A stretch of 64,000 bases of DNA from Metallyticus violacea (Eukaryota > Arthropoda > Insecta > Mantodea > Metallyticidae): positions 305,942,512 through 306,006,511 of the forward strand of contig CM060846.1 in NCBI GenBank assembly GCA_030762175.1. Reading direction: 5' to 3'. Made by a program: the position numbers and the translations under genes. The notes beneath the pieces were generated by a model. It was not told where the DNA came from. It did no database searches and worked only from the letters and a program-made list of their open reading frames with translations. Shown piece by piece: positions 1 through 55,640 of the stretch (within the stretch, counting starts at the first letter, position 1; every line of letters starts with the position of its first letter).

Positions 1-86
1 TTAAAAATATTTGGAACTAACTACTCCATCACAACCAAATTCTCCCCTATATAATCTGCTGAACAGAATATGAATGAAATATTTAC

Positions 87-185
87 CTCCATATGTTTTT
101 CTCCTGCATCTGTCATACACTGTGCTGCAAGTCTTTTTCTTAATTCTCCTAAATCCTTTTCAAGCTTCTCATTTACTTCAACCAA
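87..185 (-). CDS. GRIPAP1: GRIPAP1 coding exon 4
   Basis: This exon has 99 bp, 33 codons, and is phase 0 at both ends. The acceptor is a CTTTTCAG directly before TTG at 185, and the donor is GTAAAT after the GAG codon ending at 87. It encodes LVEVNEKLEKDLGELRKRLA followed by AQCMTDAGEKHME. The first 20 residues are strongly coiled-coil. The next exon lies outside the window. Confidence 0.87.
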
Positions 186-3100: not shown

Positions 3101-6100
3101 TCATTAACAATGTACTGCAGGAAACAAATGCTAAGACAGAAATGAGCAGGAATTCAAGCTGGATGATGGACGGCACTGAAAACATGCACTGCTATGCTCT
3201 ACTACAGCAGGGAAAGGTTTTATTTTGTTTGGAAACGAAAGGTTTTATTTTGTTTGGAAACACTTATATTCTGAGTAAACAGATGCAAAGTAATTCATTT
3301 AAACAAAATAAAAGAAATGAAATTATCTGGTAATGAGCCTATGGAGACCATGGGTTCTGTATGTCAGTATACTCAGGAAAGATCCCTGAACTACTTGTGA
3401 AAGTTTTGTCAGTCGAGTTCATATTCATCCTGTATATAGTTGTTTGTACTGTGCCTCCAAGTAAAATGCACTTATGTTCTTCAATTGTTGGAATATTTTA
3501 TTTAAAATTGCACAAATGAATAGGAGTTTCTGGTTCATTTTTGTGTTTTGTTATCCACACAGTGTGCATTCTTATGTTTCTAAGATTCAATTTTGCACAG
3601 GTGTGCAACCAAGCAATTCTGGCCTGAATTTAATTGAAACATTGCTGTGGCTTCTTTCCTTAGTTTTTGACAATTAGTTGCCCAAGTTTTCCAGATGTCT
3701 ATCAATTATTCTCCTTGTGGTTGAATATATTTGTTCAGTATTTGTGTCTCTTTTCTTGATTTGAGATTCACAAAAGAGTTAAAATATCTGTATAGTTTAT
3801 TTTGTTGATAAGAGTTTGATTTTTTCTTCTCTACTGTTTCATTCCCCCATTACCAAAATATGACGATATGCATTGAAAACAAATGTTCTTTTGCACATTT
3901 TCTAATGTTCTGATCAGTTTTTTGATGTCTAGCACTGATTCTGTAGGTGGGCAGTTATTCAATGCTATTAACTGCATTGCTACCTTTGAGTGTACTAAAA
4001 GGAACAGCATTAGTGTGAACGAATATTTATTTTTTCTACATATTACAATTACAGTTTTATAATATATACTGGAGTGCTTGTTAATTCAGGATCCTATAGA
4101 ACTAACACCCTGGTTGTTGTGTATTGGATCCTACATCACTCTAACTATACATATTATTGAGTGAACTTTACAAAATCTTCCCTAAAGGTGATTTCCTTCC
4201 CTCACTTATTACCATTTTCCCTTTTCTCCACAATTTTTCTCTTACTTTCCCCACATAATTTCCAAATTGATTTGAAATCTTTTTTCTGCTAATCCAAAAA
4301 ATCTTTAATGCCAGAATTTATCCCACTTCTTGTTCCATATTTTGTCCCCTCCATATTTTGGTTTAACAGCATTAGTACACATAACATACTGAAAATTCTT
4401 CCTCTGCATGCACATTATGTATATAATATACATAATACAAAATTTAAAGCAAATGTAGTAATCCAACATGTGATTTAATCTTTATCTTTCTTTCTTTGGC
4501 CTCTGTCATTATGCCCTACTGTGGTATGAACCTTTCATGATGATCACAATAACAAATAAAAGGACAATGATCCAGCTAGTGCTCAAACCTTAACTATTTC
4601 ATGCAAATTATTTTCATCAGAATGTAAATGTAATATTTTCAGTTCCTTTCTTAAAACAATAAATAAAAATACAAAATGTTTACGGAATGTCGGAATCCGC
4701 ACAGTGAAACTTTTGTTAATCTTATTTTGATTTAAAGTAAAACACTAAAAATCATGTCGTCACATTAAAACTCTCTTTAAGTTTCACAAACACAATATGT
4801 GTTTGTGTTTGTGAAACTTAAAGAGAGTTTTAATGTGACAACATGATTTTTAGTGTTTTACTTTAAATCAAAATAAGATTAAAAATACAAAAACATCAAT
4901 GAAAGTCAAACCCAGTAGTTTTGTTTAATACATTCATTCAAAGAGAAAAATTGCACCATATTTAAATGAAGCATTTTAAGTGCTGTATTTGACAATTAAG
5001 AACATAGTGCATGACAGGCAAATATTAAAAATTAATGCATTAATGCTGTAAAATGACAATATTTTAGGATTATCCAATGACTTTTCCTCTACAAAACTCA
5101 TGCTCAAGTCATTCTGCTTCCAAGATTAAGATTCTGGCTAGAGAAAGAAAACAATGTATATATTCCTAACATATTGCTATACAATCTTAGAGCAAACAGT
5201 AAGAACAAAACTGGAATAAAGAGAATAAGGGGCAACCTATGAGAAGGGTAAGAAGAAAATGTGAAATAAAGCAAGAAATAATAGGGTAAAAATGGAAAAT
5301 TGGAAAATAGGCTTAAGAGTTGAAAGCAAATGCAGAAATAGAAGAGATGATGCTGTATTTGTGTATGATTATGTACTATACAATGACTCAAAATAGCTAA
5401 ATTTTATTTTTTTCATTCATAAATATATGCATGCACACGTATTCATTCACACATAACCACACACATAAAACTTAAGACTGTCTTTTATGATTTATTTGGC
5501 AAAATACTTGGTTTTTGTACATAATGCATAAAATACAGTAAAGGATCACATTTCAAGACTAAGTAATGCATACAGCACATTGCTATATTTTTTATTTATT
5601 TATTCTTATCCGCAAAGTCTTACCGAAGAAAATTCTTGCAGCAAAGTCCGGTTTTGTAAACGAAACTCATCTTCTTGAGCTTCAAGTTTTACCTGCAGGT
5701 TCTCATTTTCATTTAATAGTAGGTCAATATCTTTGGCTTTTTTGCTCCTATTTATAGTTTTCTGAAGCTTTTGGTATTCTCTTTCCAATCCACTAATGTT
5801 TTTAATGAGACTCTCATTTTCTGGAAACATGATAAACAATGTGAAAATATGTACTATTAGCAATCATAAGATATTATAAGAACCTTCATTTAATTCAGCT
5901 GTCCTTGCAATTAATAGCTATTTGTATAGGTACCTAACCCTTTGATTGAACATATTTCAAATTCTCAATATTAATTAAATTTGGAAACTAACACAGTGAA
6001 GCACACATCTCTTTTGAGTTGAACTATTTAAACACACTCTTTTTAACTTATATGTATAATTCTTGAAGCTATTTACAGTGAAGTCACCATATTTAAAATG

Positions 6101-9100
6101 ATACATTATGGGTAACTTATTTACACACTTCACTCACTATATATTCCTAAGTTGGAACAATGTTTCGGGAACCAGCATTCCTATCCTCAGCCGTTGACCC
6201 AGTGGTTTCTGATGCTCACGTTGGTCCCTTACAAGTTGTTGTGTGAACTGTGGTGTCCTCTGGTGGATCTGAAATGAATCTAGAAAGGTGATTCCATGGC
6301 GGAAGGTCAAAATTCATAGCGATTTTATGATATTTTAAGATGAAAAAATTCTCCCAGGCGGCTAATTCAAATGAGTTCTTTATTTCTTTTAAAAGTTTTA
6401 TCTGTGGGTTTATTTCATGATTTTGGATCCAATAATGATGTGCCACTGCCGATTTTTCCATCTGTTGTTTCTTCTGGATTGTCAGATTTTTCTTGGTTTT
6501 TCCTATGTATTTCAATTTACAGTCTAAACATTGTATATAAACCGCCATGGGTGGCCGAGGTCGTTAAGGCACAGACTCGTGAGTGGGAGGTCTGCGGTTC
6601 GAATCCCGCCAGGGCCGTCCTCCCTGACTGGGGTTTTTTCCAGGTTTTCCTCAGTCTTCATAACTGGCAAATGCCGGGGAGGTACCTAAACTTAGGCCTG
6701 GAACGCTTCCTTCCTTAAAAAAAAAATATCCTTTCCCAATTTATCATTTCATCTCATGTATCATCAGTGTCCACCACCTGTGGTGCCTCAGTAGTGAAAA
6801 CGGGCATTAAACACTACTCAAAAAAAAAAAAAAACAAAAAAAAACATTGTATGGCATATATTCCTGATTTCTTTTCTATGGGTATCTTGTCTTTTAATTT
6901 TGAGCTTAAGAGGTTCTTGATATTGTATCTGTTGATTGGGGCTAGCTTTATAATGAATTTTTTGAAAACCTTTTAGAATTTGTAGTGCAGTTGTGGGTTA
7001 TACGTGAATTTGTAATATCTTTAATTACTTCTAGAGTCAATGTCTCTCTTATAATTTTCTCGAGTTTGTATTTGTTGATCCTTTTTATTATGGTTGAAAT
7101 GTTAAATCCATTGTTTATGGCTGTGTTCATCATGTATTCAAACTCATTCTTGTATTCTGTGGCATTGAGCAGAATGTTGACCAGTCTAAACGTAAAACTA
7201 TTGAATACTGCATATTGGTGTGGTACTGGGTTGAATCCATTCATTTTTATGTAATTATCTGTATGTGTCGGACTACGATATATTCCAAACTGTATATTAT
7301 TCTCTTTTCTGATTAGTTTTAAATCTAAGAATGGAAGCCATCCATCTTTCTCGATTTCTATAGTGAATTTAACAGATTTGTCTTGTAAGTTGAGTAGTTT
7401 GAAGGAATCACCTTTCTTCGGTACCATACAAATATGTCGTCTACGTATCTATGCCAGGTTTTGAATATCCAAGGAAAGGCTTTGGAGATATGTGTTTGAA
7501 ATAATCCCATGTATAATTCTGTTAATGTTGGTGATAATGGGTTTCCCATTGCTAGACCAGTGATTTGTTAGTATATTTTACTATTGAAACTGAAGGCGCT
7601 CTGTTGGATACATAGGTTCGTCAATTTAATAAGGTTTTCTGTTTCTTCATTTTGTAAACCAATATTGGTGAGCCAATCGAGAAAGATGGATGGCTTCCAT
7701 TCATAGATTTAAAACTAATCAGAAAAGAGAATAATATACAGTTTGGAATATATCATAGCCCGACACATACAGATAACTACATAAAAAGAATGGATTCAAC
7801 CCAGTATCACACCAATATGCAGTATTCAACAGTTTGACGTTTAGACTGGTCAACATCCCGCTCAATGCTACAGAATACAAGATTGAGTTTGAATACATCA
7901 TGAACACGGCCATAAACAATGGATTTAACACCTCAAACATAATAAAAAGGATCAACAAATACAAACTCGAGAAAATCATAAGAGAGACATCGACTCTAGA
8001 AGTAATTAAAGACATTACAAAATATTGCAAATTCATGTATAACCCACAACTGCATTACAAATTCGAAAAGGTTTTCAAAAAATTCACTATAAAGCTAGCC
8101 CCCAATCAACAGATACAATATCAAGAACTTCCTAAGCTCAAAATTAAAAGACAAGATACCCATAGAAAAGAAATCAGGAATATATGCCATACAATGTTTA
8201 GACTGTAATTTGAAATACATAGGAAAAACCAAGAAAAATCTGACAATCCAGAAGAAAGAACGTTTTAGAAACATCAAATTTAAACAGATGGAAAAATCGG
8301 CAGTGGCACATCATTATTGGAGTCAAAATCATGAAATAAACCCGCAGATAAAACTTTTAAAAGAAATAAAGAACCCATTTGAATTAGCTTCCTGGGAGAA
8401 TATTTTCATCTTAAAATATCATAAAATCGCTATGAATTTTGACCTTCCGCCGTGGGATCACCTTTCTAGATTCATTTAGATCCACCAGAGGACACCACAG
8501 TTCACACAACAACTTGTAAGGGACCAACGTGAGCATCAGAAACCACTGGGTCAATGGCTGAGGATGGGAAACCTGGTTCCTGAAAAATTGTTCCAACTTA
8601 GGAATATATAGTGAGTGAAGTGTGTAAATAAGTTACCCATAGTGTATCATTTTAAACGCTCTTTTTAGCTAGAGTTATTTGAGATTTACGTACTGTTGTC
8701 CATATCCTCAGCTGTTAAATGACTGTCAGATCATTGGTTAAAGTTGGTTTGGTAGGTGTGTGGACTCCTGTGGTCTTGCGATAAACTTGAATAAAGATCT
8801 GCCTGCTTCTGGGATGTCAAAATTCATTAAGATTTGCTCATGATTTTCATGTAAATCCTTTGCTATACGTTTAATTCCTTTGGCTGGTGGACTGTTTTTA
8901 ATAGCTTGATGCTTTTTTCTGGGCCTGGAATGTTTAATTTCAATAAATTTTTCACACTTTATCAGATTTGAGGTGCTAATGTGATATTGTACTTCCTAAA
9001 AACGTTTTGAAATAACTTACTGGCTACTGGGTGGTATGTGAACTTTTGAACATCTTTTTTCCCCCTAAATCTTTCACAGTTGTGATTTGTTTAGTTCTTA

Positions 9101-12100
9101 GCATCTTTGAGTGATTTAGGAGGGAAAAAAATGTTTAAAAAATTCACGTACCACCAGCAGCCAATAAGAAATTTAAAAAAATTTCAAGCTGTGCAACATT
9201 ATCTTAATACCTCAAAACCAATGTGAAATATTTATTGAAATTAAATAAAACAGATTGTTATATGGAAACAATCCAGAATTTACCAGATTAATTGTCAGGA
9301 TTGCAAAAAATGTACTAGGGGAAAAACAAAGAGAAATATAGGCATAAGGTTAAAGGAACATTGAAGAAACATCCATAACAAGCAATAGGAAAATCAGCAG
9401 TGGCATTACATTTTTGGAATAAATACCATGAGAAAACAGTTCAACAACCAAAGGAATTAAACATATCAGAAAGGTAAATATAAAATTTAATTTTGTGTCA
9501 GAACCAATACAGTGAAGTAACTAATATACTCTTAATTATCTAGTGAGTAGATTTGACAGTTAAGAATATAAAAATTATGAGCAAAATATAATGAATTTTG
9601 ATATCCAAGAAGCAGACAGCTCTTTATTCAAGTTAATCATAAGATCACCAAAGTCAACCTACACATCTATCACCCCAACTTCAACTAATGATCTGACAGT
9701 TGTTTAACAGCTCAGGATATGGATGAGGGCCCATGAAACATGTCAGTAAATCTCTAGTAAGGGAAGCTAAAACGATTGTTTTAATTAGTTCAACTCAGAA
9801 GAGATTATTTTGGAACATCTCTTTTGTTAATTATGAAAATATTAATTTCTTAAATATATACTGCCTCTGTGCACCAGAATATTCTAAAACTGCACAGATT
9901 CCCCATATAACAATTTTAAGAATTTGAAATTGAAAACCTGTAGTAGTTAAGTTCATGCCCCAATTACACAATGATGAAAAATGTATACCATCAAATGCAA
10001 ACTATGGTGGTGGGTTGACCATAAGACATCTGATTACATCAACATGTGTAAATAATCATACAGATGAAGTATTTCATTGATTATGTTAGCATTCTCCAAC
10101 TCATGAAATACATTGTCTCTAAATTTTGATAAAACAAAATTAGATTAATTACCTGAGATATTCCTGGGTCTTAAAATATATAACTCCTATTGACTGTAAA
10201 GCTCATCAGCTACACGTAAACATACATTTTAGGATAGTTCTGTAAAAATATTGTTTTTTATATTATAAAAAACAAAAAAAGTTATTTGAGTGAAAAATGG
10301 TGTAGTTATCAGATGTATATAAAAGGCATTATTTAAAAACTTAAAAGATATTAAGCTCTTCTTCGGAAATATATATTTTTCTTTTGGTAATGTACTTAAA
10401 TAAAAAGACAAATTCATTATCTCACTAATTCATTATAATGCTAGAATAAAAATCTTACACAGACCTGCTTCAATACTTCGCTTCCAAAAGGGAGTTTTTA
10501 TAAATAAATGAAAACCATAAAATCTCATCCACTATTATTCTTTGAGACTATTCATTATATTAATTTTTATGAAATAGAGCACTGCAAATACTGATAAATA
10601 ACGATCTAGAAATTCCTGAGGTACTTTATCTTATCTTATAATCTTATGATAAGTTTCTTAACTGCAATAGGTTTAAAGATACTGTAGTTGATACTGGAAA
10701 ACAATGTAAAGAAGGGAGCTTACAGTAAACCAGTAAGACCAAGATTACGGAGCTTAAAAATGGTAAGAAATTTAGAAGGTATGAAAATGATCAATGTCAG
10801 GCAATGAAATTCAGATTATTGATGATTTTATCTGGTAATTAAATAGCAGCACAAGTAGTTGGCAAGAGATAAAAAGTTAGCAAGGGAAGGATGGAAATTA
10901 AATTGGTTAAGAAGTGCATTTGCAATGGATGCACTGTGGTTTGAAAGAGTAAAACTGTGCTACAGGAATCAAAATTGGCTTTTGGATAAAAATTTTGGAG
11001 ATAGAAGACGTTGGGAGAAAATAGATATTAACAACTTTTGATACATAATACTGGGTATGTGCTAGAAAATGGTAGATCTTTTAGATCTTTGTTGAAACTA
11101 GATATTTTTAAGTGAGAAAAACACTAAGGGGAAAAGTTTTGAAGTATTCATTTTAACAGAATATTTGGAATGACAAGAAAAATATGTTTCAGTTTACTTA
11201 GATAAAGCGCATTAAGAAATGAAGAAAAATGGCCCAGGAGAAGCATTGGTGTCAAGTATTATTGTGATAAAGAGATTTTGGCAGATATTAGATCTAGGCT
11301 TGAGAATGTGGTTATACAGGTAGTTACACAGGCAGGCTTCTTTTATACTAGTTTTTCTGTAACATTAAACTACCCTATTTGCCAAGCTTTGACATTGCAA
11401 ACAACACACTGAAAATGGATAAATTGTAACTGACAATTTATGGTTCTTTAGTCACTAAATTCACAGAAATATCTGAAAATAAATGAACCATTGTTCTGAA
11501 GAAAACTCTAAAGACCAGATATACATAAAGAAGATTAGGGCAGATTTTATGGAGAATTAAAATGAAATGTAAGTAGTCTATATATAGGATAGGGTACTTG
11601 GAAATGCATGGTAGAGGGAGGGTAAGAACAGCAGTGCTTTTGGTAAGCCAGACACAAAAGTTCTAGTAATATGTTAGCTGAGGGTGGTGTTTGATGTCAT
11701 CCGAATATCTGGGGTGACAATATCACATTCAAGAGAAAGGGAAATTAATTACTGTTAATCATTTTAGTATTTCTTTTATGTAACATTGAATTGTACCTTT
11801 ATATGGTTTGGCACAGAGTTGCTTTGTTATTAATTTAGCACAAATACATTATTAACACTAGAAAGACAAGCAGTAACTATCTTTTTCACCATGCTTTGAC
11901 ATTACAAATAATGCATTGAACATGGACAAATCATAAATGATAACTTATTGTCCTTTGATCACTAACTTAGTACAGTTAAAAAGATTTTTAAAATATTTGT
12001 TTTTACAAATCATAAGAATAGGTGACGGAGTTTGAAGGGTAAACACATGCACATAAAAGAGGTGGAAAACCCACATTATTGACGACAGAATGAAAGATGC

Positions 12101-15100
12101 AGGTACATTACAAGTGAATAAAAGCTACTTCCCTACAATTGTCTTTGAATAACTGTAAACCAGTTGAAATTGCATTATTCCGTTTGTGGTCTAACCACTG
12201 CTATAAATTTTGGAAATATCTATTAACCAGCATAGATTTTAATTCAGAAATAAATAGTACTTTTTAAATAAATAATACGTACCTTTGTATTATCAAAATA
12301 AAATATTTGAATATTCAAACAAAATCGGAATTTTTACATTGTTTACATGAGAAATTTCAAGGGGTGAGTACGCATCTGTTTGAATTATACAATACATTTA
12401 AATTATTTATGTTTGAATTAAAAAGACTCCACTGTATTTTAAAGAGATAACTTATTTTAATTTAGGGAGAAAGCAATAAATACAGAGGGTGCCAAAAAAA
12501 TGTATACACACTTCACGCAAAAAATAACTATGTTACCATTACAAAACTGAATTCACACAAACAGACAATGATGAACACTAATCATCTTAGATTTTTGCAG
12601 TAACAACAGTTGCTCACAATGCCCACCATCAGCATTGATACATTCTGAGTACATTGAACTACTGATGGAGCAACATTTGCAAAATTGTCCCCAGTGGTTG
12701 CAGCACATACCGTTTCAATTTCTTTCCAAAGTGCTGCCAGTATAGCAGCACATCATACGGTATACAACATCCTTAAGGGTTCCCCATAGGTAGAAGTTCA
12801 ATGGAGTTAGATCCAGAGAATGCGGTGAAAAAATTGAACCTCTTCGTCCTATCCAGTGCCTTGGAAGATTGTCATCCAGGTACGCATTTACATCTTGGTG
12901 GTAATGTGGTGGTGCATACACTACATTGTGAACATTGCATAGGATACCAAGAGTCTCAAATTTGTCTCACATGCATGCAGTTGTTACTCGCATTGGGTTT
13001 CTGTTCTGTACACACGTCCCCATTGCCAATGAACTTCAACAACATTCTTGGTTCTCCAATAACACTTCAAAATTGCTTTTCTCTGTTCAAACGATAATCT
13101 TAGCTCCATTTTGTTGTAGCAATGCTAGCATAAGACTTTTTTTAATTTTCTTTATTTAGGGAGTGAAATGACCAACAATTTTGTTCAGAGGCCTCTTTTT
13201 TCAGGCATGAGGTTCTTCATTGTGCTGTAAATGTATGACATGGGACCCACGGCTTTACTTTCCTTCAGAAGGAAGCCATACTTAGGATTATAGACTGGAA
13301 AAAATCCATTGGTCCTGGCTGGGATCGCACCCCCAATCTTGGGTTTACGAGGCAATATAATGTAATGTGAATCACATCTGTTCACAGAACATCATACTAT
13401 ACATTACTGTTGTTTTTATGTTCAACTTTGAAATATATTAAATAGATATCTACTGAGAAAGTGTGTACACATTTTTTGGCACCCTCAGTATATTGTTTTT
13501 ATTTAAGTGAACATTGTTATATAAAAGATGCATTTATTCCAAATTTTATTTCTGTTACTGAATAATATTTCCTTCTCTGTATTAAACATTCAATCTCCTT
13601 GTTTATTACATAACTAAATTTGAAAGATTTATGACTATGAGTTTCAATAAAATTGCATTAATAATTTTAAAATGCCACAATATATGCAAAGCTTTATGTC
13701 ATATCTGTCAGTTTATACCACCTCTATGGCTAGGCACCGACACGGGTGGCCGAGGTCGTTAAGGCATGGACTCGTGAGCGGGAGGTCTGGGTTTGAATAC
13801 CGCCAGGCCGTCCTCCTTGACTGAGGTTTTTTCCAGGTTTTCCTCAGTCCTCATAAATGGCAAATGCCGGGGAGGTACCCTAAACTTAGGCCCGGAACGT
13901 TTCCTTCCTTAAAAAAAAATCCTTTCCCAATATATCATTTCATCTCATGTATCATCAGTGTCCATCACCTGTGGTGCCTCTGTAGCAAAAACAGGTGTTA
14001 AACATTATTAAAAAAAATCTATGGCTAGGAGCAGGAACATTAGGTGCCACTAAGCCCAAGCCTGGAACAGCATGGATATCTGCCTGTTCTTCTATAGGCT
14101 CTGCATCCCTTACTTTATTTTCAATATTCGCCAATTCTAACCCATTCACTTACTTTAGATATTAAAGGGAGATATTCAGCATCAAGTTGTCAGTTTTCTC
14201 ATCAAAATCAAAAACATCCTTTCTGACTCGCCCTATGGTAAACTATTGAAATAATTAAACAATTCAAATTTTGAAAGATAACATGAATGGTCATGATGAT
14301 GAGAAAAGGCAAGTTTCAGTTAGGCCTACAAAGAGCAGTGTATTAACTAGTTGTACTAAGAGTACATCTACTCTCACACTACGTAACGTGTAATCTGAGA
14401 AAAAACACAGGGAATGTGATTCTAAAGATGACTCAAAAGTCAGTAGTCATGTGTAAAAAATACTGCTGCAGGTTTAAATATGACATACTCAAAATATTTG
14501 CAGTGGTCAAAATGTAAAAATGCTTATAACACTCATAATTATTTCACAGAGATATGAATTATTTAAAGGAACTACAATTGATAAAATTCAGTATTGAAAT
14601 ATATGGGTAAAATAAATCCTGCATGATTTTAATGAATATTATGATGATAAAAGCATTAGAAAGAATAAATTCCCAAGAAAACATTAGAGCAACTCACAAT
14701 TTTTCTTTAAGGAATCTTGGATTTCTTTTCTAATATTCTATAAACTTCTACACTGTTAACTGATGTAGGAAAAAATGGAAAAATTACTTATTTAGTTGAA
14801 ACAATGGTAACAGAATTTAAATCAGGTTACCTTTATTTTGCTTTATTAGCCAGAAGGAACTAACAAGAGAGAGCATTCACTATGAAAATTGGGAGAGACA
14901 GAAAGTTGACTTACCAATTTTATATTTCTTGCATTGCTCCTCCAAACTATAATTGACAGTTCTAAGTTCAATAAGCTGTGCCTGAAATAAAAAAAATTCA
15001 TATTACTTGATTTTATGTTGCATAAATTAGGAACATATCCATATTATCACTGATAATTAAGGCCTGAGTGCTTATGAAAATTTATGTTTTTTTTCCTTTG

Positions 15101-21100: not shown

Positions 21101-24100
21101 GACATTACTCTATTGCATTTACTTGTTCAGTTTGGTACTTAAATGCTCACTTGTTTTAGCATTGTGTAAAATTGTGAACTGATATTTAACTGCAAGCATT
21201 TACTAACAACTAACTTAATGGGTACAGAAAAAGAAGAAATGATCAGTTTCAAACAGGGTTCAGAGCAGGAAGAAAAATATCTGACATGTTGATAATAAAG
21301 ATAATTGTGGATAAATATTTAACCAATAAAGGGAAAGGGTTTACATTGTATTTATAGACTTTGAGAAGGCATTTGATACCATAAATAGAGATGCAATGGG
21401 TTAAAATTTAAAAGGAAAGGAATAAGCAATACTCATTTAAGAACTTTTGAAAAATAAGAATTTTTTTTAAAAATTCTGACAAATCTGTTGTCTAACACAC
21501 TTTTATGCTTCACTTACTTTTAAATATGGTGGGACCGGTTTTGAAGAGACATCCTCTCCCTCTTCAACCAACTTGAAAACTGGTAGGAGAAACTAACATC
21601 TATCAGGACCTGTGGCTCCACCCTGGTGGTGTTTTCTTTATAAACTGGAAATTTGTATTACATTCTCCTGTAATGTCAAAATTCATATGATGATCCCTAT
21701 ATATATGAATGTAAATCTTTCATGTGTCCAATTCTGTACGTCCATGTGCTTCTTTAAGTAATTTTATTTCTCTTTTTATGTGGTGATTATCTTTCCAAAA
21801 ATAGTGTGCCACTACTGACCTATTTATCTGTTTGTACTTAATGTTCCTGAGACATTCCTTTAACCATGTAACATCTCAAGAATGTTAAGTACAAACAGAT
21901 AGATAGGTCAGCTGTGGCACATAATTTTTGGGAAGATAATCACGACATAAAAAGAGAAATAAAGTTACTTAAAGAAGCACACGGACATACAGAATTGGTC
22001 ACATGGGAAAAAACTTACATTCATAAACATAGGGATCATCTTATGAATTTTGATGTTCCTTTAACCATGTAACATCTCATTAACGTTAAGTACAAACAGA
22101 TAGATAGGTCAGCAGTGGCACACTATTTTTGGCAAGATAATCGTGACATAAAAAGAGAAATAAAGTTATTGAAAGAAGCACACGGATGTACAGAATGGGA
22201 CACATGGGAGAAGATTTACTCATAAACATAGGGATCATCTTATAAATTTCAAGATTACAGAAGAATGTAATACAAATTTCAGTTTATAAAGAAAACACAA
22301 CTATGGCGGAGCTACAGGTCCTGATAGATGTTAGTTTCTCCTACCAGTCGTCAAGTTGGTTGAAGATGGAGAGGATGTTTCTTCGAAACCAGTCCCTCCA
22401 TATTTAAAAGTAAGTGAAGCATAAGAATGTGTCAGATGACAGATTAATTAGAAATTACAATAAGCAATATGTTTATAAAATTATTACAAAAGATAATATG
22501 AGAACTTTGTGTGAAATTTTCAGGTAATAAATTAATGGATTATATCCAGAGTAAAACAGGAGTAAGACAGGACTGTATATAAGTCCAATACTATTCAGTC
22601 AACATATTGATGACATTCTGGATGAGACTCATAGAGAAAAGATATAAATACCAGGGTTTCACAGATGGCTTAGTAATTGCAACTACATCTAGTTGAGGAT
22701 TGAGAAGGGCAATTAAAGTAGTGAATATGTTTTGCTATGAATGGGGATTGAAAGTAAATGAAAAGAAATCAAAGATTTCTTTTAAAAGAGGTTATAAATT
22801 GGGAAAGGATGAGAAATGGCAGTTAAATGGGAGAGAAATAGAGATGGTAAGGAAATTTAATTATCTAGGGTTAAGATTAAGCTCTAATGTACGTTGGAAT
22901 GAACAGAAAAAAATGGCAATAGCAAAATGAAAAGCAGCTGTGAGTATTATAAGAGCATATTTAAGAAAAACTCCAGGTACAAGAGTAAATTAGATGGAAA
23001 GAATTTACACAGATACAGTAGAAGAAAAAATGTTAAATGGGGAAGAAAGATGTTGATAAAATAAAGTTTTTGTAAACAGATCTTAGGTCTTCCAATAGCA
23101 TCATCAAATGGTGTAGCACAACTAGAATTATGTAGGCATTCCACCGAGATAAAAATTATTACAAGAATTATGAAATGCATCTGTAGAATTACCACAATGG
23201 AAGAGAGCAATATTATTAAAGAATGTTTCAATATCCAAGAGAAATATAAATGGAAAGTATTGTGGTATTCTCAAAATGCAGGAAATTTTGCAATAGATAA
23301 GTATGGGAAACACAGATAAATAGGGAATCAAAAAGAGGACTCTGGGAAAAATAAATCTAAGATTAGAAAATATTGAAAGACAAGAAATGTTTGGTATTAT
23401 GAGAGAAAAGAAATCATTGAGATTGTATGGAGAAATAAAAAATAGTATGGGGTAGGGAAAATACCTATAGAACAATGTAATAAGGCAGACTGGGAAGGAT
23501 TTGTATGTGCTAGAACTGGAATTATGAATTTAAAAGGGTTAAGATGTGATAAAGATGTAGCAAAATGCCTAATATGTGGGGAAACAAATATGAATGTTTA
23601 CTATTTATTATACTGCAGGCAACAGTTATGGAGAGAACAGGCTTGGCAACAAAAATGAAAGAATTTAGATGTGGAAATATTAATTACAAAGATTCTAACT
23701 GTAAAAGGAGAGAAGAATATGAAAGTGATTGGGAACTATTTGGGCAAAGTTAGAGAGAAATGGATAAGAACGATTAAGATGAAGATACAGAGAAATGTAA
23801 CTTTATAAGTACAATAAGTCATATAAGTATATAAAATGATAGCATAATATGGTTATACATATGATGGTCACCAAAACACTAATAACCTGAAGTTGTGTGA
23901 ATTGGGATCAAAATGTTAGCAAGCAACTATAAGAAGAAAATATCGAGAGTAGATAAACAAGTGTTATTCACTTTATTTGTAGATCTTATTTTGTAATTTT
24001 TTTAATAGTGTTTAATACCTGTTTTTACTACTGAGGCACCACAGGTGTGAAAACTGATGCTACATGACATGAACATATATTGGGAAAGGAATTTTTTTTA

Positions 24101-27100
24101 AGGAAACAGGCCTAAGGGTACCTCCCTGGCATTTGCCATTCATGAGGATGGGAAAAACTTGGAAAAAACCTCAGTCAGGGAGGACGATCCGGGTGGAATT
24201 CGAATCCCAGACCTCCCGCTCACAAGTGTGCACCTTAATGACCTCAGCCACCTGTGGTGGTTTATTTTGTAATGAATTAATAAAGTATATATATTTCAGT
24301 GTAGTATACATGTAGTCTGTTGAGATATATTTGCAATAAATTTCAATACAATAATTGAACCCAAGTCTTCCACATATTTCTGTAGGAAACTGCTGATGAG
24401 CCAAAGACAAGGGTACAGTAATTAGTTAAATAAGCAGATTAAATGATAATGTGTTGAAAACGTATAATTTCTTAATTAAGGTAATTTATGAAATTAATGG
24501 AACTAGCTACAAAGGAACGCAGGAAAAATGTACAATTAATTGTAATGTTATTAACTGAAAAATTTCAATAACACTTTTCTTCTTATTATTTGTATTAACT
24601 ATCAGCATATTGTGAAATGAGAGCCTATCCCTTGTCAGATTTAACAAAGACTGCTGGCAGAAATTCCTCAATAACTCTTTAAATCAGTATTTTAATGAAA
24701 ACTCTTGACAATCATGTAGTAATCCACATAAACTTGAACACATTGTTAGCATGTTTTCTTTATAAAATGAAATTTGCTGAAAAACATTCTTTGAACAGCT
24801 ACTTAGAAGAAACAATTACTTCTTATCCCCAACACTGAAACACTAAACCAAAATAATGGGAAGGGGGGAAGGAATAGGCAGAATAGTCTGAAATAGGCAA
24901 AAAATATAAAAATTTGCAAAAATAAAACCTTTTCATATTGTTTGATAGTTCATAAATTTCATTTCCATGCACTTAGATCTTTTCTGACAGTTATCAATTA
25001 AAAAAAAAAAAAAGGGCATTTTACCATAAATTCAGGATCTAATCATAAGTTAAACTGGAATAGGCATACAGATATTACAGTTTCCAAGCTCAGCTAAATC
25101 TGTTTTGCCTTAAGAAGCCTGAGAAATCTTCTGAAAAAAAAAATAATTGTGTACTGTTCACTTTGCTTACTTTCACTCAATTCTCAGATATGGGGTAATT
25201 TAGTATATCATAAAAGAGCATTTATTCTGCTTAATAGAGCACTAAGAATCATATGTGGCATTGCAGCTAAACAGCCCTCTTCAAGAATCTTAAAGTCTTT
25301 ACTCTTACTGGTAAATATATTTATTTATGTACAGGACTTTCATGTAAAAACTATCCCACAAGTGCCATGTTGATTCTCGGTGACTGGGCATGTCACACTG
25401 CTCACCACCAATGGAATTCAAAACACTGTACATGAAATATAGATTTTACATGAAAGTCCAGTACTATCTAACCATTATCTTTTACGATTTTAAATGTAGG
25501 TTTGCTGTTCATCATTATAACACCAGAGATGGGAATGATATGCATCAACTAGCAAACTTGCTGATGTGTTACTGTGCTGTCCAAATATATAAATATATTT
25601 TCAAAGTTTTTCAAATCTCTGGACAATCATGCTAAGTGCAAAGATTTTAAGAAAAACTCAAAACAATTCTTAAGCACTAATACTTATTTTAATATAGAAA
25701 AATACTTTAGCAGTTCAACAGGCTGAGTTATATATGCATTGTGTTTTGCCATATGCCATTTGTTGCTTAAATATGTAATGTAATATTTTTCATTTATTAC
25801 AGTCATGGGTCATGGACAGAATGAGGGGTGTGTGAAAGTAAAGTTGTTATAGGTGGTAATTGCAGTGTTTTATCTCTATATATCTTGTTGTGTAGATCCT
25901 GCAAGAGCTCAAATTTACATTCTCCAATAGAATTTATTTTTTATTCATGTTGTATATCAGTTGTGCATTGTTTTTAAGGCAATTTTTTTTCATTTATATT
26001 GTTTCATTGTATTCAATTACAGCACAACCAATGCAGGATTTGTTTTACCTGTGATATGTGTGAACTATGTATCCCATTTATCTATAGTATAAAATGTTGT
26101 TTTTGACTTGTTCCATATCCTACAAGCTTATGCTCATTATAGAATCTACAGAGCAACAACTAATGAACCAACTAACTACCTAACTTACACTCTAGCAGGA
26201 TCCTCTGTTTTTCTATAATACATTGATGGATGGCTGTTACAGTACTCTTCGTTATTTTAGTTGAAAATTATACTATACATAGTAAATTAAACGTACTTAG
26301 TTAGGAGGTATGCTTAGTTTTTATTTCATTACCTTTCAGAGTGTCTACATTACAACTACCACATACTACGAAATTAATGCTAATCTTTTACAAATCTGTA
26401 ATTACTTTTTATAAATTCTTAACGAAATAGTTAAACTTTCATGTTAGAGTTCCATATATAGCTAAAATAACAAAAAGATTGCTATTGCATTCAACCTGTG
26501 CTACATAGCATTCAAAATGTTCTCTACAGCAGATGCAGAGATCGATATTCATGCATAAATTACCATTTTTTATGAAAATACATACACATTTTGTAACTCA
26601 TCTACAGAAAATAGAAAATAATAAAAACTGTTTATATTTACACATTTTAGCTCAGCTAACATAAGTGGTACTCTGTCATAATGTTTAATGGTTTGTAAAA
26701 AAATTTCTATATAATTTTTTTATTTATTAAGGTTCTTATATTTTGACGAAAAAGTGTGAAATAACATTGTGCTAAAAAGGAAGCTCATAATGATTTTTTT
26801 CTGCCATGTAGAACTTAATTCTGGAACCCTTCTCTTTGACTTCCTAAAAAAATATACTTAGCGCCCAAAATAATAGGTCACCTCAGCTTGTTTTGCCTCA
26901 AATGATCTGAGAACCCTTCTAAATCATAAAGAGTTATGCACTATATACTTTGTTTCTTTTACTCCATACTGAGAAAGGGGATAATTTTCTGGGATAATTT
27001 AGTACAATGTAAAAGTATGTTCTGTCCATAAAAAAGAGCAATAAGAATTTACAATCTTAAAGACCTTCTATTTAAGTATCTTAAAGTCCTTACTTTCACC

Positions 27101-29219: not shown

Positions 29220-29440
29220 GCCACGGGTGGCCGAGGCCTGATTGACTGAGGCATTTTCCAGGTTTTTCTCAGTCCTCATAAATGGCAAGTGCCGGGGAGG
29301 TGCCCTAAAATTAGACCTGGAACGCTCCCTGTCTTAAAAAAAAATATCCTTTCCCGGTTTATTATTTCATCTCATATATCATCAGTGTCCATCGCCTGTG
29401 AAGCCTCAGTAGTTAAAACGGGCGTTAAACACTATTCTGT
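29220..29440 (+). mobile_element. SINE-1 copy with deleted tRNA-like middle
   Basis: It begins CCACGGGTGGCCGAGG and jumps directly to TTGACTGAGGCATTTTCCAG, so about 60 bp including the B box are missing. The body (GCCGGGGAGGTGCC) and tail (GGGCGTTAAACACTATT) are intact. No clear target duplication was found. Confidence 0.88.
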
Positions 29441-31310: not shown

Positions 31311-31649
31311 CATTGTTTCTAAAATATATTCTTCTACGTGTATTCTATAAGGGTTGAAGGTCTTAACATTTTTGTGAATTTATAGACCAGGAGTATAAAC
31401 AAGTTTTAGGGTATAGCAGCAAATGGTGGCTTTTTACTCCCTGCGGTCGAACGTCTTCTGACTATACTTGTTCCTCTGAAATCATATTTTGAAAATCAAA
31501 ATAAATTACTATTTCTTATTACTTCATCCTTTGAAAATGCTTTATCAGAAGCATGGCTGCACTTTCTTCACAAATAAGCATCAACTTTTCACTCTGCAGT
31601 TCAAAGAGTAGAGGGTCAAAAAATTACAGAATTTGAGAAAAATTCCGTT

Positions 31650-31928
31650 TTTTTTAATAGTGTTTAACGCCCACTTTTATTACTCAGGTACCACAGGCGA
31701 TGGACAATGATGATACATGGAATGATATATTGAGAAAGGATTTTTTTTTAAGGAAGGAAACATTCCAGACCTAAGTTTAGGATATCTACCCGGCATTTGC
31801 CAGTTATGAGGACTGAGGAAAACCTGTAAAACCCCAGTCAGGGAGGACGGGTCTGGCGGGATTCGAACCCCAGGCCTCCCGCTCACGAGTCCGCGCCTTA
31901 ACGACCTCGGCCACCCGTGGCGGTACGC
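31650..31928 (-). mobile_element. SINE-1 copy inside the hAT pseudogene
   Basis: Reverse orientation, with tail TAGTGTTTAACGCCCAC on the left and the tRNA-like head CCTTAACGACCTCGGCCACC on the right. B box and A box are well preserved. The flanks AAAATTCCGT and ACAATTTCCGT suggest an imperfect target duplication. Confidence 0.92.
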
Positions 31929-44790: not shown

Positions 44791-45111
<321 letters not shown>

Positions 45112-50645: not shown

Positions 50646-51740
50646 AGTTCACATGACCTTTCTGCAATGACCCATTTAATTAGGGATATAATATTTACTC
50701 AAATTTAACTTTTGACTTTTCAGGAGTATCATTCAAGTATTTCAAGAGTAATTTTTAATAATTGATTGTGATTTATTCAATAAACGTCAGCAAACTTAAA
50801 TAACTGCTTAAGAGAATAAAATAAAATGAAAATTTGGAAGGCTCTGCTAAAAAAATTGAAAGTGATACCAATTATAAATTATTTGCTCATTAAGTGCAAT
50901 ATTCCAGCAATTATATGCCTTTAGTACAGTACTTGTTCATTTAGGCTGAAAACATTCCTAAACTTTGTGACCTATTGGTACAAAGACAGCTTGTCATGGC
51001 TTCACTTTAAGCACTGTTGTAATAAACTGTGATACTTTATTATAAACACCACCACTTTACAGAAAATGAACTGCAACTGCCACTTAGAGTCAGGTCAAAA
51101 TTCGGCATCATGAAGCAAAGAACGAACATAAGTTAAATCAAGAATGGTGACATGTGCTTTGCTAAGATAGCAGCTGTTTTCATACCTTGTACAAAACAGG
51201 ATGAATGATTAGGTAAAAGTTTATTTTTATATCTGAAAAGTAAACTGATGTTACATGATATGAAACTCTAACCACATGAAGCAATGACAGTAAATATTGT
51301 TTGCTAATAAAAGGTGCACTGTGTTTGTACCTTGCAGAGGCTGTGAGGCACAAAATATATTGCATCACTTATGTTCTTTAATTTACATTACAGTAATGCT
51401 TTCAATTAAGATATAAGAGACTGAAAGAATAATTGCTGAGGATTATTTTTTCATAATAGTTTTATGCATTTTTATGTAAATATTTGAAAATCTATGTTCA
51501 TAAATGTTTTACAAACTTACATTTATAAGGGACAAAATTTAAAATATAAGCCGAGATGACCATACCCAAAACTTAAATTCATTTTGAGTTTCTCTTGCAA
51601 TATATATTCAGCCTTGAGATTTTAAATCTGAAGGTCATGAACCAAAATCAGCTTATTTCTCTGCTCTCCCTTCTTGTGAGGGTAAAATACAGTCCAGGGG
51701 AAGTTTTACTCCTTGCCAGCATTTTCTGTTGGGTATATTT
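50646..51740. other. unassigned intergenic sequence
   Basis: AT-rich with no recognisable element. Confidence 0.4.
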
Positions 51741-51800
51741 AAACATTTTAAAAAAAATTGAGTTGAGATGGCAACATACACACCACTAAAATTCAATAAA

Positions 51801-51846
51801 AAGGAAGACTAGTTTCAGGAGCCATTGCTCCTATCGTCAGTTCCTG
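51801..51846 (-). ncRNA. type I hammerhead ribozyme motif, copy 1, conserved core intact
   Basis: On the minus strand: stem I strand AGGAA, core CUGACGA, one extra U, stem II AGGAGC/GCUCCU closed by AAUG, core GAAAC, a two-base loop UA giving the palindrome ACUAGU for stem III, cleavage triplet GUC, then UUCCU pairing fully with AGGAA. All invariant core bases (C3 U4 G5 A6 . G8 A9, G12 A13 A14, U16.1, H17) are present. A very short stem III with a palindrome is known for PLE hammerheads. Activity is inferred, not shown. Confidence 0.75.
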
Positions 51847-51882
51847 GAGATTGTAACATACACACCACTAAAATTCAATAAA

Positions 51883-51928
51883 AAGGAAGACTAGTTTCAG
51901 GAGCCAACACTCCTATCGTCAGTTCCTG
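51883..51928 (-). ncRNA. type I hammerhead ribozyme motif, copy 2, conserved core intact
   Basis: Same layout as copy 1 with the identical core, stem I, stem III and GUC triplet. Stem II is AGGAG/CUCCU with a changed loop (UGUUGG). The core is unchanged while the loop varies. Confidence 0.72.
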
Positions 51929-52070
51929 GTCGACATACACACCACTAAAATTCAATAAAAAGGAAGACTAGTTTCAGGAGCCATTGCTGCTGAAACTAGT
52001 CTTCCTTTTTATTGAATTTTAGTGGTGTGTATGTTACAATCTCGACTCATTTTTTTTTTAAAATGTTAAT

Positions 52071-52589
52071 ATTTGACATCACTGTTACAAAAGTTCACTA
52101 TATTTTATACAAATATTTAAACAGTTCACTAAGTACCAAGATGGACACTGATATAATCTATCAGGACAGAAACTAAATGGTGAAATATTGAAAGTGGAAG
52201 AACTGACATTTTAAGTACTTATTAGTGAACAGTGCTTTAATTCCTCATTGTTGCTACTTTTTTATAACTTAAATCTTAGGTCAAGACCTACCAATCTGTA
52301 GTTAATTGTTGAAGTCATTCTATAGTACTACATGATTAATGTAGTCAAATAATTGTATGGACAACAAGAATAAATTATTGAGAGCATTAATAATTCTTAA
52401 TATTTTGCAGTTTAATGTTGTGAGTTTGGAAAGCTGTCATTAGTGTAGTCATGTCTTGAAAAAAAGAACTCATACTTGAGGAAAAATGTTATAACACATT
52501 TTAGACATCATTCCAGTCCTGCATTACTTTCTTATGTTGGGCATAAAAAGTCATTTTCAATAAATATATCATCAGTTGTTGACTGATTA
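52071..52589. other. unassigned intergenic sequence
   Basis: AT-rich with no recognisable element. Confidence 0.4.
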
Positions 52590-53850
52590 CTTGAAGTGAT
52601 GACTGGATTCCAAGATGCATCATTTGTGGAGGTATCTTATGGTTTGAATAGGAACTTAAGTAGATAGCTGTATTGGATTAAGAAATTCTAAAAGTCAACT
52701 GCCACTGCTGATTTATCAATTTGTTTAAAATTTATAAATTTGTTTAAAATTGATAAATTCCTAAAGTTTCCTTTCTTCAAATTTCTCTTTATTTTTTCAA
52801 TGTATTTTGATTACAATCTGTACATTCATTTTCATAAATTTCTGATTTCTTTCCTGTTGGTATATGATTACATTTATTCTTTGGTGTTAACTTTATACTA
52901 TGTTCTTTGAATATCTTACTGAATTTACTGTGTTAAGTCAAATGGTATCACTAATTTTTAAAAAATGGTGCAGGTATGTAGATGATATATTTGGGGGGGG
53001 AAAAAAAATCAAGGAAGTATAGAAAAATGGGGGCTCCCATTCCTGTATTTAAAAATTATAAGAAATGCAGACAGGTTCAACTTTGGAATTTATAGAAAAG
53101 AAACACATGCAGAACATTACATAAACAAATAACTGCCATAACACCATCCCACACAAATATGCTGTATTCAACAGCTTGGCACACTGACAGAATCAGAGTA
53201 CAAAATAGAAAACCAACAGATAAACATAGCAATTATCAATTGTTTCAACTAAGACAAAAATTCTATAAAAGAGGTTTCCACACTGGAGGAGGTCAAGGAA
53301 AGTAGCAAATTCAAAATGTTCACATATCATTCAGCATATTCAAAGAACATGGCATAAAGTTAGCGCCAAAGAACAAATATAATATAAAACGTTTACTAGG
53401 TTTCACAGTAAAAGATACCATACAAACAGAGCAGAAATCAGGAATTGATGAAATTTAATGTGCAGAATGTTATCAAAAATACATTAATAAAATAAAGAGA
53501 AATTTAGAAATTCTGAGAAAGGAACAAATTAGGAATATTTGTTATCAACAAATAGATAAATTGGTGGTAGCAACTCACTTTTGGGCCCAAAGACACAAAA
53601 TTAAAGCATAGGCTTGTCTGCTGAAAAGCTTCACAACCCAATAGAGCCACTGTTTGGGGAAAAAAAATGCTCATCCTGAAAAATACAGGAAAAGTAATTA
53701 ATTTTCCACCTGTGGACGAAGTCAGCAAGTACCTATTTGAACCATCAGATGTCCTCACAGAAGTGCTTACAATCCAGTCACCACAATCAGAAGTCTGTTA
53801 ACAGTTGATAATATGACAGATAACCCCCAAAACGTTCAAATAAGTGGAAT
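52590..53850. mobile_element. Inverted pair of Penelope-like elements (PLE pair 4)
   Basis: The minus copy (about 52920-52590) encodes KEHSIKLTPKNKCNHIPTGK and SEIYENECTDCNQ. The plus copy (about 52960-53830) begins with the RT box YVDDIFGG near 52977, then HKYAVFNSLAH, EHGIKLAPKNKYNIK-like text, and the nuclease segment ECYQKYINKIKRNLEILRK with LVVATHFWAQRHKIKA. Both copies share TTTGAATATCTT/AGCATATTCAAAGAA blocks in inverted order. Both are frameshifted. As in pairs 1-3, the endonuclease ends face outward. Confidence 0.78.
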
Positions 53851-55370: not shown

Positions 55371-55640
55371 CACTAGAAATATTCATTATAAACAGATAGA
55401 AAAATTGCCCATAGCAGCACATTTCTGGGAGGGGGAAAGATTTTTATAAGGAAATATGAACATAAACTCATGAATTTTGATGTTCCAGAAGCAGACAATA
55501 TTTTGTATAAGTTCATCAATGGACTACCAGAGCCGTCATGGTTACTACTTTTCCAAACTAGTATGATCTGTCCATCATTTACAGTTGATGATGTGAACAA
55601 GAGCTTCACGAAACATGTCCTGAATTTTAAAAATTTTGAG
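55371..55640 (+). mobile_element. PLE 3' end fragment with hammerhead-like relic
   Basis: The plus strand reads RKIAHSSTFLGGGKIFI then YEHKLMNFDVPEADNILYKF, the end of a PLE nuclease frame. It is followed at 55578-55628 by UUGAUGA, a stem GUGAA/UUCAC, GAAAC, AU and GUC with CUG pairing to CAG in stem I. Core position 3 is U instead of C. Confidence 0.7.
55578..55628 (+). ncRNA. hammerhead ribozyme-like relic (core position 3 is U)
   Basis: UUGAUGA, stem II GUGAA/UUCAC, GAAAC, the palindrome ACAUGU for stem III and a GUC triplet are present. A C3-to-U change should weaken the C3-G8 pair, so activity is doubtful. Confidence 0.5.

What the first reader, a model, noticed from the sequence alone, without database searches (positions are those of the whole stretch)
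51745..52070. Tandem and inverted array of hammerhead ribozyme motifs with intact cores
Two consecutive 80-bp units encode type I hammerheads on the minus strand with every invariant core base present, five perfect stem I pairs and a palindromic two-pair stem III. The loop of stem II differs between copies while the core does not. A third unit breaks exactly inside stem II and turns into an inverted copy. PLE pLTRs are known to carry minimal hammerheads, and retrozymes move as tandem hammerhead RNAs. An 80-bp tandem period is shorter than usual for either. It could be a minimal non-autonomous retrozyme-like unit or a recombination product of PLE ends.
Basis: partly seen in the sequence, partly recalled or inferred. 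Interest (0 to 1): 0.78.

Follow-up and report, generated by a model that had tools for sequence, protein, structure and literature searches.

The report
Penelope-element ends carrying hammerhead ribozymes
The small ribozyme array is most likely the scar of one jump of a common Penelope-type retrotransposon, which pasted several copies of its short ribozyme-bearing end into the genome without its genes; it is an uncommon shape of a known kind of element, and it records how that element copies itself.

Summary
In detail: two 82-bp minus-strand units and a third that breaks in stem II and turns into an inverted copy; each full unit carries a minimal type I hammerhead (strict descriptor: 2 sites in the window, 0 in 150 shuffled windows). 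It is not a free-standing retrozyme satellite. The host genome (2.32 Gb) shows what it is: the unit is the pseudo-LTR (pLTR) of a Penelope-like element (PLE), with 1,737 exact matches to a strict hammerhead pattern. Linked copies carry reverse-transcriptase and GIY-YIG domains. The true insertion is 51746-52112 (367 bp), flanked by an 11-bp target-site duplication, with the PLE 'tail' at its right end only. Strict tandem joints of this kind are rare (12 at 10 places) and all but one pair differ, so the array fits a one-off template-jumping product better than copying of an RNA circle. In relatives sampled by their tail, the 5' ends of insertions pile up just upstream of the ribozyme, with no excess at its cut site: the copied RNA was mostly uncut. 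In open copies the ORF ends inside the ribozyme. Cleavage is untested, and no core-specific conservation is visible among copies.

The parts
51735..51745 (.). left target-site duplication ATATTTAAACA
   Evidence: exact 11-bp match to 52113-52123 at the ends of the element; matches of 10 bp or more occur in 19 of 27 own flank pairs and 0 of 702 cross pairs
51746..52112 (.). whole insertion: pLTR-only Penelope-like insertion, 367 bp
   Evidence: ends fixed by comparison with 39 other genome places and by the duplication
51746..51764 (-). 3' end of the pLTR (ACTCA + T-run + AAAA), tail-less end of the insertion
   Evidence: a 102-nt query that includes this end matches to position 92-102 in most terminal units
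51765..51846 (-). pLTR unit 1, 82 bp, with hammerhead
51802..51845 (-). hammerhead of unit 1: CUGACGA 51840-51834, GAAA 51816-51813, predicted cut between 51807 and 51806
   Evidence: descriptor
51847..51928 (-). pLTR unit 2, 82 bp, with hammerhead; stem II loop differs from unit 1
51884..51927 (-). hammerhead of unit 2: CUGACGA 51922-51916, predicted cut between 51889 and 51888
   Evidence: descriptor
51929..51934 (-). GTCGAC, the recurrent 5' end of pLTR insertions, at the joint of units 3 and 2
   Evidence: the same six bases or a one-base variant precede CAGGAAC in many copies
51935..51981 (-). unit 3, cut off inside stem II
51982..51985 (.). inversion centre, in the loop of hammerhead stem II
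   Evidence: inverted repeat I3
51986..52060 (+). inverted pLTR unit (stem II 3' side to T-run)
52061..52112 (+). PLE tail AAAATGTTAATATTTGACATCACTGTTACAAAAGTTCACTATATTTTATAC(AA), right end only
   Evidence: 33 of 40 places of the first sample hold exactly one such tail and 7 none in the stretch fetched
52113..52123 (.). right target-site duplication ATATTTAAACA

Best explanation
The array is one retrotransposition scar of a Penelope-like element (RT + GIY-YIG endonuclease) whose roughly 105-bp pLTR contains a minimal type I hammerhead. SHOWN: the units are that element's pLTR; the insertion has an 11-bp target-site duplication; the arms are head to head; only one end has the extra tail. INFERRED mechanism: the RT starts inside the RNA at the tail, as described for the anole PLE, here in the 5' leader of the element's own RNA. 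It copies through the uncut hammerhead to the RNA 5' end at about (A)GTCGAC, and so makes a leader-only cDNA. It jumps to further leader RNAs at varying internal points, giving direct units of 82 and 77 bp. A cDNA from the other cut target strand, started at the other of two sites, meets it head to head; here the joint is the self-complementary stem II hairpin. The hammerhead belongs to the parent element; it was not cut in the template and did not build the array.
For: Genome: 1,737 exact matches to a strict hammerhead pattern, reversed-pattern control 0. In the first sample (39 other places plus the window) opposed arms are head to head; 18 of 40 places have a PLE-protein match in the stretch, some away from the unit. 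RVT_1 (40.1 bits, cutoff 29.6) in L093; GIY-YIG in L091 (26.5) and L093 (24.3), cutoff 22.6. Flanking duplications of 10 bp or more in 19 of 27 testable places, window 11 bp, against 0 of 702 cross pairs; 8 bp or more in 24 of 27 against 43 of 702. Tails: one in 33 of 40 places, none in 7; in 54 places with a tail and an inverted arm, no inverted arm reaches into the tail. 5' ends in the tail-query sample (39 places, window left out): of 25 that fall within -30..90 of the unit, 12 lie at -15..-1 (3.1 expected if even, P 1.4e-5) and 2 within four bases of the cut (1.9 expected). Of 26 arms from both samples starting at -16..3, 25 could be mapped finely: 13 begin 6-8 nt upstream of CAGGAAC, including L029 and L086, which have no inverted partner. 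All eight direct-tandem joints stop at different points (q45-q86) and restart at q1-q3. Internal RT initiation, both-strand priming, tail = sequence between two RT start sites, ribozyme mutants still inserting: PMC11167929 (main-text section read). Inverted pLTR, one optional tail, self-priming at palindromes: PMC3846280 (passages).
Against: The RNA 5' end is inferred from DNA breakpoints; no RNA data. GTCGAC is itself a palindrome, so part of the pile-up may come from cDNA-cDNA joining or from alignments running into the inverted arm. Other tail-bearing arms start at scattered points (17 to 71 in 11 of 39) or further upstream (14 of 39 above -30). In the tail sample two places (L054, L078) hold two tails, and L060, L078 and L085 have a minus arm downstream of a tail; I take these for neighbouring insertions but did not resolve them. 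[quoted passage not shown] L090 shows two identical 70-bp joints, which a pure jumping model does not predict. No complete element with a 5' pLTR was examined. Both samples hold only the best-scoring places (40 of 1,664 and 40 of 964 candidates).
Confidence: 0.83

Rival explanations
1. Minimal retrozyme: tandem hammerhead RNA is cut into monomers of about 80 nt, circularised by a ligase, and reverse transcribed round the circle into tandem DNA.
For: Tandem hammerheads with a palindromic stem III, the arrangement said to be needed for dimer cleavage (PMC6466107, passages); PLEs are proposed helpers of animal retrozymes (PMC7229834, Results parts 1-2 of 3 and Discussion read). L090 has three identical 70-bp units.
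Against: Circle copying predicts equal units and one repeated joint; the window's two joints differ (82 and 77 bp) and so do the six others of the first sample. Strict tandem joints with periods of 58-88 bp occur at 10 places only. The ends are PLE ends, with tail and target-site duplication. Reported animal repeats are 150-450 bp.
Confidence: 0.07
2. One pLTR insertion was later rearranged at DNA level (replication slippage plus fold-back) into direct and inverted copies.
For: Differing joints and short shared words (GTCGAC at the unit start, TCGAC near its end) would also suit DNA template switching.
Against: The head-to-head plan with one tail and a flanking duplication recurs at many independent places, so it is how the element inserts; later rearrangement is not needed, though it could still have added the direct units here.
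Confidence: 0.07
3. Chance hammerhead-like sequence in an unrelated repeat, without catalytic meaning.
For: No Rfam hit at gathering threshold; extra U next to the core; core and stem II decay at about the same rate among copies.
Against: Strict descriptor 0 in 150 shuffles. Five diverged PLE families of the window keep the fold: stem II has 23 of 25 standard cells and two-sided changes in 5 of 5 pairs, reached by 0.8% of re-dealt 3' halves (one hammerhead per family, the second copy of family A left out). PLE hammerheads are a known feature.
Confidence: 0.03

Closest known systems
Poseidon element of Anolis carolinensis (PAc), PMC11167929
   Same: RT + GIY-YIG; hammerhead in the pLTR overlapping the ORF; AT-rich target; tail between two internal RT start sites; ribozyme cleavage not needed for insertion in vitro.
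   Different: In PAc the ORF start lies in the hammerhead; here the ORF end (stop UAG in stem III) does. Here 26 of 39 tail-sampled insertions lack the ORF in their tail-bearing arm.
Penelope families of Adineta vaga, PMC3846280
   Same: Direct plus inverted pLTRs, one optional tail of about 31 bp, target-site duplications of 8-10 bp in some copies, palindromes at inverted joints, solo pLTRs.
   Different: pLTRs there are about 180-220 bp and the word hammerhead does not occur in its main text; here the pLTR is about 105 bp and more than a third of it is ribozyme.
Minimal PLE hammerheads of Cervera and de la Pena 2014 and of Lunse, Weinberg and Breaker 2017 (neither held here; known from citing papers and recall)
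   Same: Type I, diminished palindromic stem III, no evident loop-loop contact, associated with PLEs, thought to cleave as dimers.
   Different: One unpaired U between A9 and stem II in this family; whether that is usual for PLE hammerheads I could not check.
Metazoan non-LTR retrozymes, PMC7229834
   Same: Small type I hammerhead repeats in tandem, in genomes that also hold PLEs.
   Different: 150-450-bp units in multi-copy arrays with circular RNAs; here 77-82 bp, two full units and a part, unequal joints, rare, and bounded by PLE ends.

Membership tests
Penelope-like element (Penelope/Poseidon type) | Reverse transcriptase and C-terminal GIY-YIG endonuclease in linked copies | tested here: met
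   RVT_1 in L093, GIY-YIG in L091 and L093 above Pfam cutoffs; L092 just below (22.2 against 22.6); the short L095 piece had neither. Weak best PDB matches to telomerase RT, E 0.009. The window insertion itself has no ORF, and two ORF pieces of PLE A in the window gave no Pfam hit at 1e-3.
Penelope-like element (Penelope/Poseidon type) | Direct and inverted pLTRs, optional single tail, target-site duplication | tested here: met
   Window and most relatives; two tail-sample places with two tails left unresolved.
Type I hammerhead ribozyme | CUGANGA and GAA core, three helices, NUH cleavage site, open stem I | tested here: met
   Two units in the window; 47 of 62 near-full units in the first sample keep the strict core, the 2 that did not parse counted as not. 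An unpaired U next to A9 departs from the usual form.
Type I hammerhead ribozyme | Covariance-model match at Rfam's threshold | tested here: not met
   No gathering hit in the window; 15.3 bits to Hammerhead_II, gathering 37.
Type I hammerhead ribozyme | Self-cleavage | not testable with these tools
   Needs an assay. In the model fold a double hammerhead (-24.8 kcal/mol) and two monomers without stem III (-23.2) are close, and both lie above the MFE of -39.1.
Retrozyme | Uniform tandem units with one repeated joint, as from a circular RNA | tested here: not met
   Units of 82 and 77 bp with different joints; tandem form rare. L090 is the exception. Circular RNA itself not testable here.

The most novel reading that the evidence does not exclude
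In this element one 44-nt stretch does several jobs: it codes the end of the ORF, folds as the hammerhead, and lies at the very 5' end of the RNA. Because the RT starts at a tail about 150 nt downstream of that end, it mobilises the leader alone, so most new insertions are ORF-less ribozyme modules. Their breakpoints are a genome-wide record that the template RNA was not cut by its ribozyme, so cleavage acts elsewhere, for example to end productive templates or to remove the cap and leader. The palindromes of stems II and III may also serve as joining points between the two cDNAs.
Probability: 0.35. Interest if true: 0.62.

Novelty: new member of a known kind. Interest (0 to 1): 0.43.

Why it matters
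What the hammerhead does in Penelope-like elements is described as unknown (PMC7761336, passages). Leader-only insertions end where the copied RNA ended, so their breakpoints tell whether the RNA was cut. In the 39-place sample they pile up upstream of the ribozyme and show no excess at the cut site. With well over a thousand copies in one genome this becomes a measurable test, and it agrees with the in vitro result for the anole element.

Tried and rejected
Rejected: retrozyme array (unequal joints, rarity). Rejected: array as part of the old PLE relic next to it (52566-53814): that relic's arms are about 77% alike over 145 bp, while the array's inner arms are 98% alike and it has its own target-site duplication. 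Rejected, my own first idea: that the unit is homologous end to end with the pLTR of the PLE at 6092-8656. The whole alignment beats all 2000 shuffles (52 against a maximum of 46), but the part downstream of the hammerhead does not (24; 480 of 2000 shuffles reach it), so only the ribozyme is recognisably shared between those families. An early guess of a 6-bp duplication inside the tail was replaced by the 11-bp one once the tail was known. Rejected as weak: 'core conserved, loop variable' from two units. Genome test of that idea, counted by eye from the listings, which show the first 100 places, all on contig C1: with the core intact, 17 of 100 have at least one of 11 fixed sites around stem II changed (2,070 places in all); with those sites intact, 7 of 100 have CUGANGA changed over 6 sites (2,099 in all); about 1.5% and 1.2% per site. 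Also dropped: an argument that tandem joints should lie at the cut site; circle copying does not require that (and the joints of L044 and L090 lie 4-5 nt past it). No full-length element was sought, and a tandem search for periods of 89-119 bp did not complete. One scan of viral contigs gave nothing; two 19-base matches in archaeal contigs are about the 1.9 that chance gives in 257 Gb (my arithmetic).

Full report
What was claimed and what is there. The window holds two full 82-bp units (51765-51846, 51847-51928; 94% alike), a third that stops in the loop of hammerhead stem II, and an inverted copy from that point (arms 98% complementary). On the minus strand each full unit has all fixed core bases, five stem I pairs, a 5-6 bp stem II and a two-pair stem III made of the palindrome ACUAGU. 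A strict descriptor finds these two sites and no other in the window, and none in 150 dinucleotide-shuffled windows. Rfam has no hit at its thresholds; in a 143-base stretch Hammerhead_II comes up at 15.3 bits, threaded across two units. An extra base at this place is known from a viroid hammerhead (recalled, no call).

Neighbours in the window. Pieces of several Penelope-like elements lie in the same 64 kb: A 6092-8656, B 8699-9723, C 21606-22249, D 52566-53814, E from 55375. A relaxed descriptor (one core mismatch, at least two stem I pairs) finds six sites against a mean of 0.64 (maximum 3) in 100 shuffles: two in the array, three at or just after PLE relics A, C and E, and one (15050) that looks like chance. 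B's hammerhead was read by eye and misses the descriptor through its stem I. Taking one hammerhead per family (array, A, B, C, E; the second copy of A left out), stem II has 23 of 25 standard cells and two-sided changes in all five pairs; 0.8% of re-dealt 3' halves do as well. With five families this is modest support for the fold. Outside the hammerhead the array and element A are not detectably alike.

The host genome decides the question. After many unanswered tries the genome search ran (2,322,072,525 bases, 310 contigs). A query of two units gave 63 matches in 40 scored of 1,664 candidates. A strict hammerhead pattern has 866 + 871 exact matches and a reversed control of 0, and 3,131 matches with up to two mismatches. 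I fetched the 39 other places. Terminal units match almost to the end of a query that includes the T-run, and in this sample opposed arms are head to head, ends outward. Beyond the T-run one end has a fixed extension ending in TTTTATAC: 33 of 40 places have one, 7 none in the stretch fetched. This is the Penelope 'tail'. With the ends known, the window insertion is 51746-52112 with ATATTTAAACA on both sides. Of 27 testable places 19 have a flanking match of 10 bp or more, against 0 of 702 cross pairs of flanks; for 8 bp or more it is 24 of 27 against 43 of 702. One of the long ones, L048, is an AT repeat.

It is a Penelope element. 18 of the 40 places have a PLE-protein match in the fetched stretch, some of them away from the unit. 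Longer stretches beside units gave RVT_1 (40.1 bits; cutoff 29.6) and GIY-YIG (26.5 and 24.3; cutoff 22.6), with a third GIY-YIG at 22.2, just under, and none in a fourth short piece. The ORF runs into the hammerhead...NSEAGSR-PGTDDRS(N/D)GSRN-stop, with CUGANGA inside the codons for T-D-D and the stop UAG in stem III; 15 of 74 distinct units have at least 60 open codons upstream in that frame, and several stop two codons earlier through the C/T variant at position 30. The common variants at N7 and at position 20 are silent in this frame. In the anole PLE it is the ORF start that lies in the hammerhead. One literature search on this overlap (listing only) showed no title or abstract on a PLE stop codon in the ribozyme; most subscription papers are not in that library.

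How the array arose. A second sample was drawn by the tail alone (40 scored of 964 candidates, all 40 held), so it does not favour any 5' end. With the window left out (39), the tail-bearing arm reaches above -30 in 14 and starts within -30..90 of the unit in 25. Of these 25, 12 start at -15..-1 (3.1 expected if even, P 1.4e-5) and 2 within four bases of the ribozyme cut (1.9 expected); eleven of the 39 start at scattered points from 17 to 71, those two among them. Of 26 arms from both samples that start at -16..3, 25 could be mapped finely, and 13 begin 6-8 bases before CAGGAAC, at (A)GTCGAC; L029 and L086 end there without any inverted partner, and L029 has a matching flank repeat by eye. 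By its tail-bearing arm 26 of the 39 have no ORF (start at or after -60); one of these, L071, has a long opposite arm. In 54 places with a tail and an inverted arm none of the inverted arms carries the tail. Not everything is tidy: L054 and L078 hold two tails, and L060, L078 and L085 have a minus arm downstream of a tail; I take them for neighbouring insertions. The eight direct-tandem joints of the first sample stop at eight different points, q45 to q86, and restart at q1-q3. I read this as RT starting at the tail in the RNA leader, running off the RNA 5' end, jumping to another leader, and joining head to head with a cDNA started on the other target strand. Internal starts, both-strand priming and the tail between two start sites come from PMC11167929 (main-text section read), which, however, saw no difference in start site between strands; head-to-head pLTRs, the optional tail and palindromes at joints from PMC3846280 (passages). 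The transcript start is inferred, not shown.

Against the retrozyme reading. Circle copying should give equal units with one repeated joint. Strict tandem joints with periods of 58-88 bp exist at 12 sites in 10 places (found periods 59-82), and only L090 repeats a joint: three identical 70-bp units whose linker is a foreign hairpin, next to an antisense tRNA-like stretch. That place remains open.

What does not support a special status. Among genome copies, core and stem II decay at about the same rate (first 100 listed places each, counted by eye), as expected of dead copies. The MFE of the two-unit RNA keeps stems I and II but pairs part of the core. Mean pairing probability over 50 genome units is 0.33 for stem I and 0.72 for stem II. 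Catalysis is unproven.

Verdict. A real but ordinary kind of thing (a PLE insertion) in an uncommon shape, with useful evidence on how PLEs copy their RNA and on the unsolved role of their hammerhead.

Noticed in passing
L090:846-1056 (C1:91504545-91504755): Three 100%-identical 70-bp hammerhead units with a foreign hairpin linker (GTAGACCGACTGCCGGTCTACGAG), ending in a normal pLTR and tail, beside an antisense tRNA-like stretch; the only place found with a repeated identical joint.
   Followed up: partly
window 6092-8656, 8699-9723, 21606-22249, 52566-53814, 55375-55620: Five diverged Penelope-like relics, several head to head, most with hammerhead remnants after the endonuclease end. GAAACNNGTC has 8 matches in the window against 1.0 expected: 4 in the array, 3 after relics B, C and E, 1 elsewhere (56511).
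   Followed up: partly
L091:106-999, L093:83-727, L095:2422-2769: The PLE ORF ends inside the hammerhead; the stop codon UAG, where not preceded by an earlier stop, is part of stem III (ACUAGU).
   Followed up: partly
L054, L078: Two tails in one stretch, either neighbouring or nested insertions, or an exception to the one-tail rule.
   Followed up: no
window 6541-6826, 13736-14017, 23989-24265, 29243-29437, 31648-31924: Dispersed repeat of about 200-290 bp, 79-90% alike; the copy at 6541-6826 sits inside PLE A. It looks like a tRNA-derived SINE (by eye).
   Followed up: no
window 44792-45111: Long TAA microsatellite, about 107 units.
   Followed up: no
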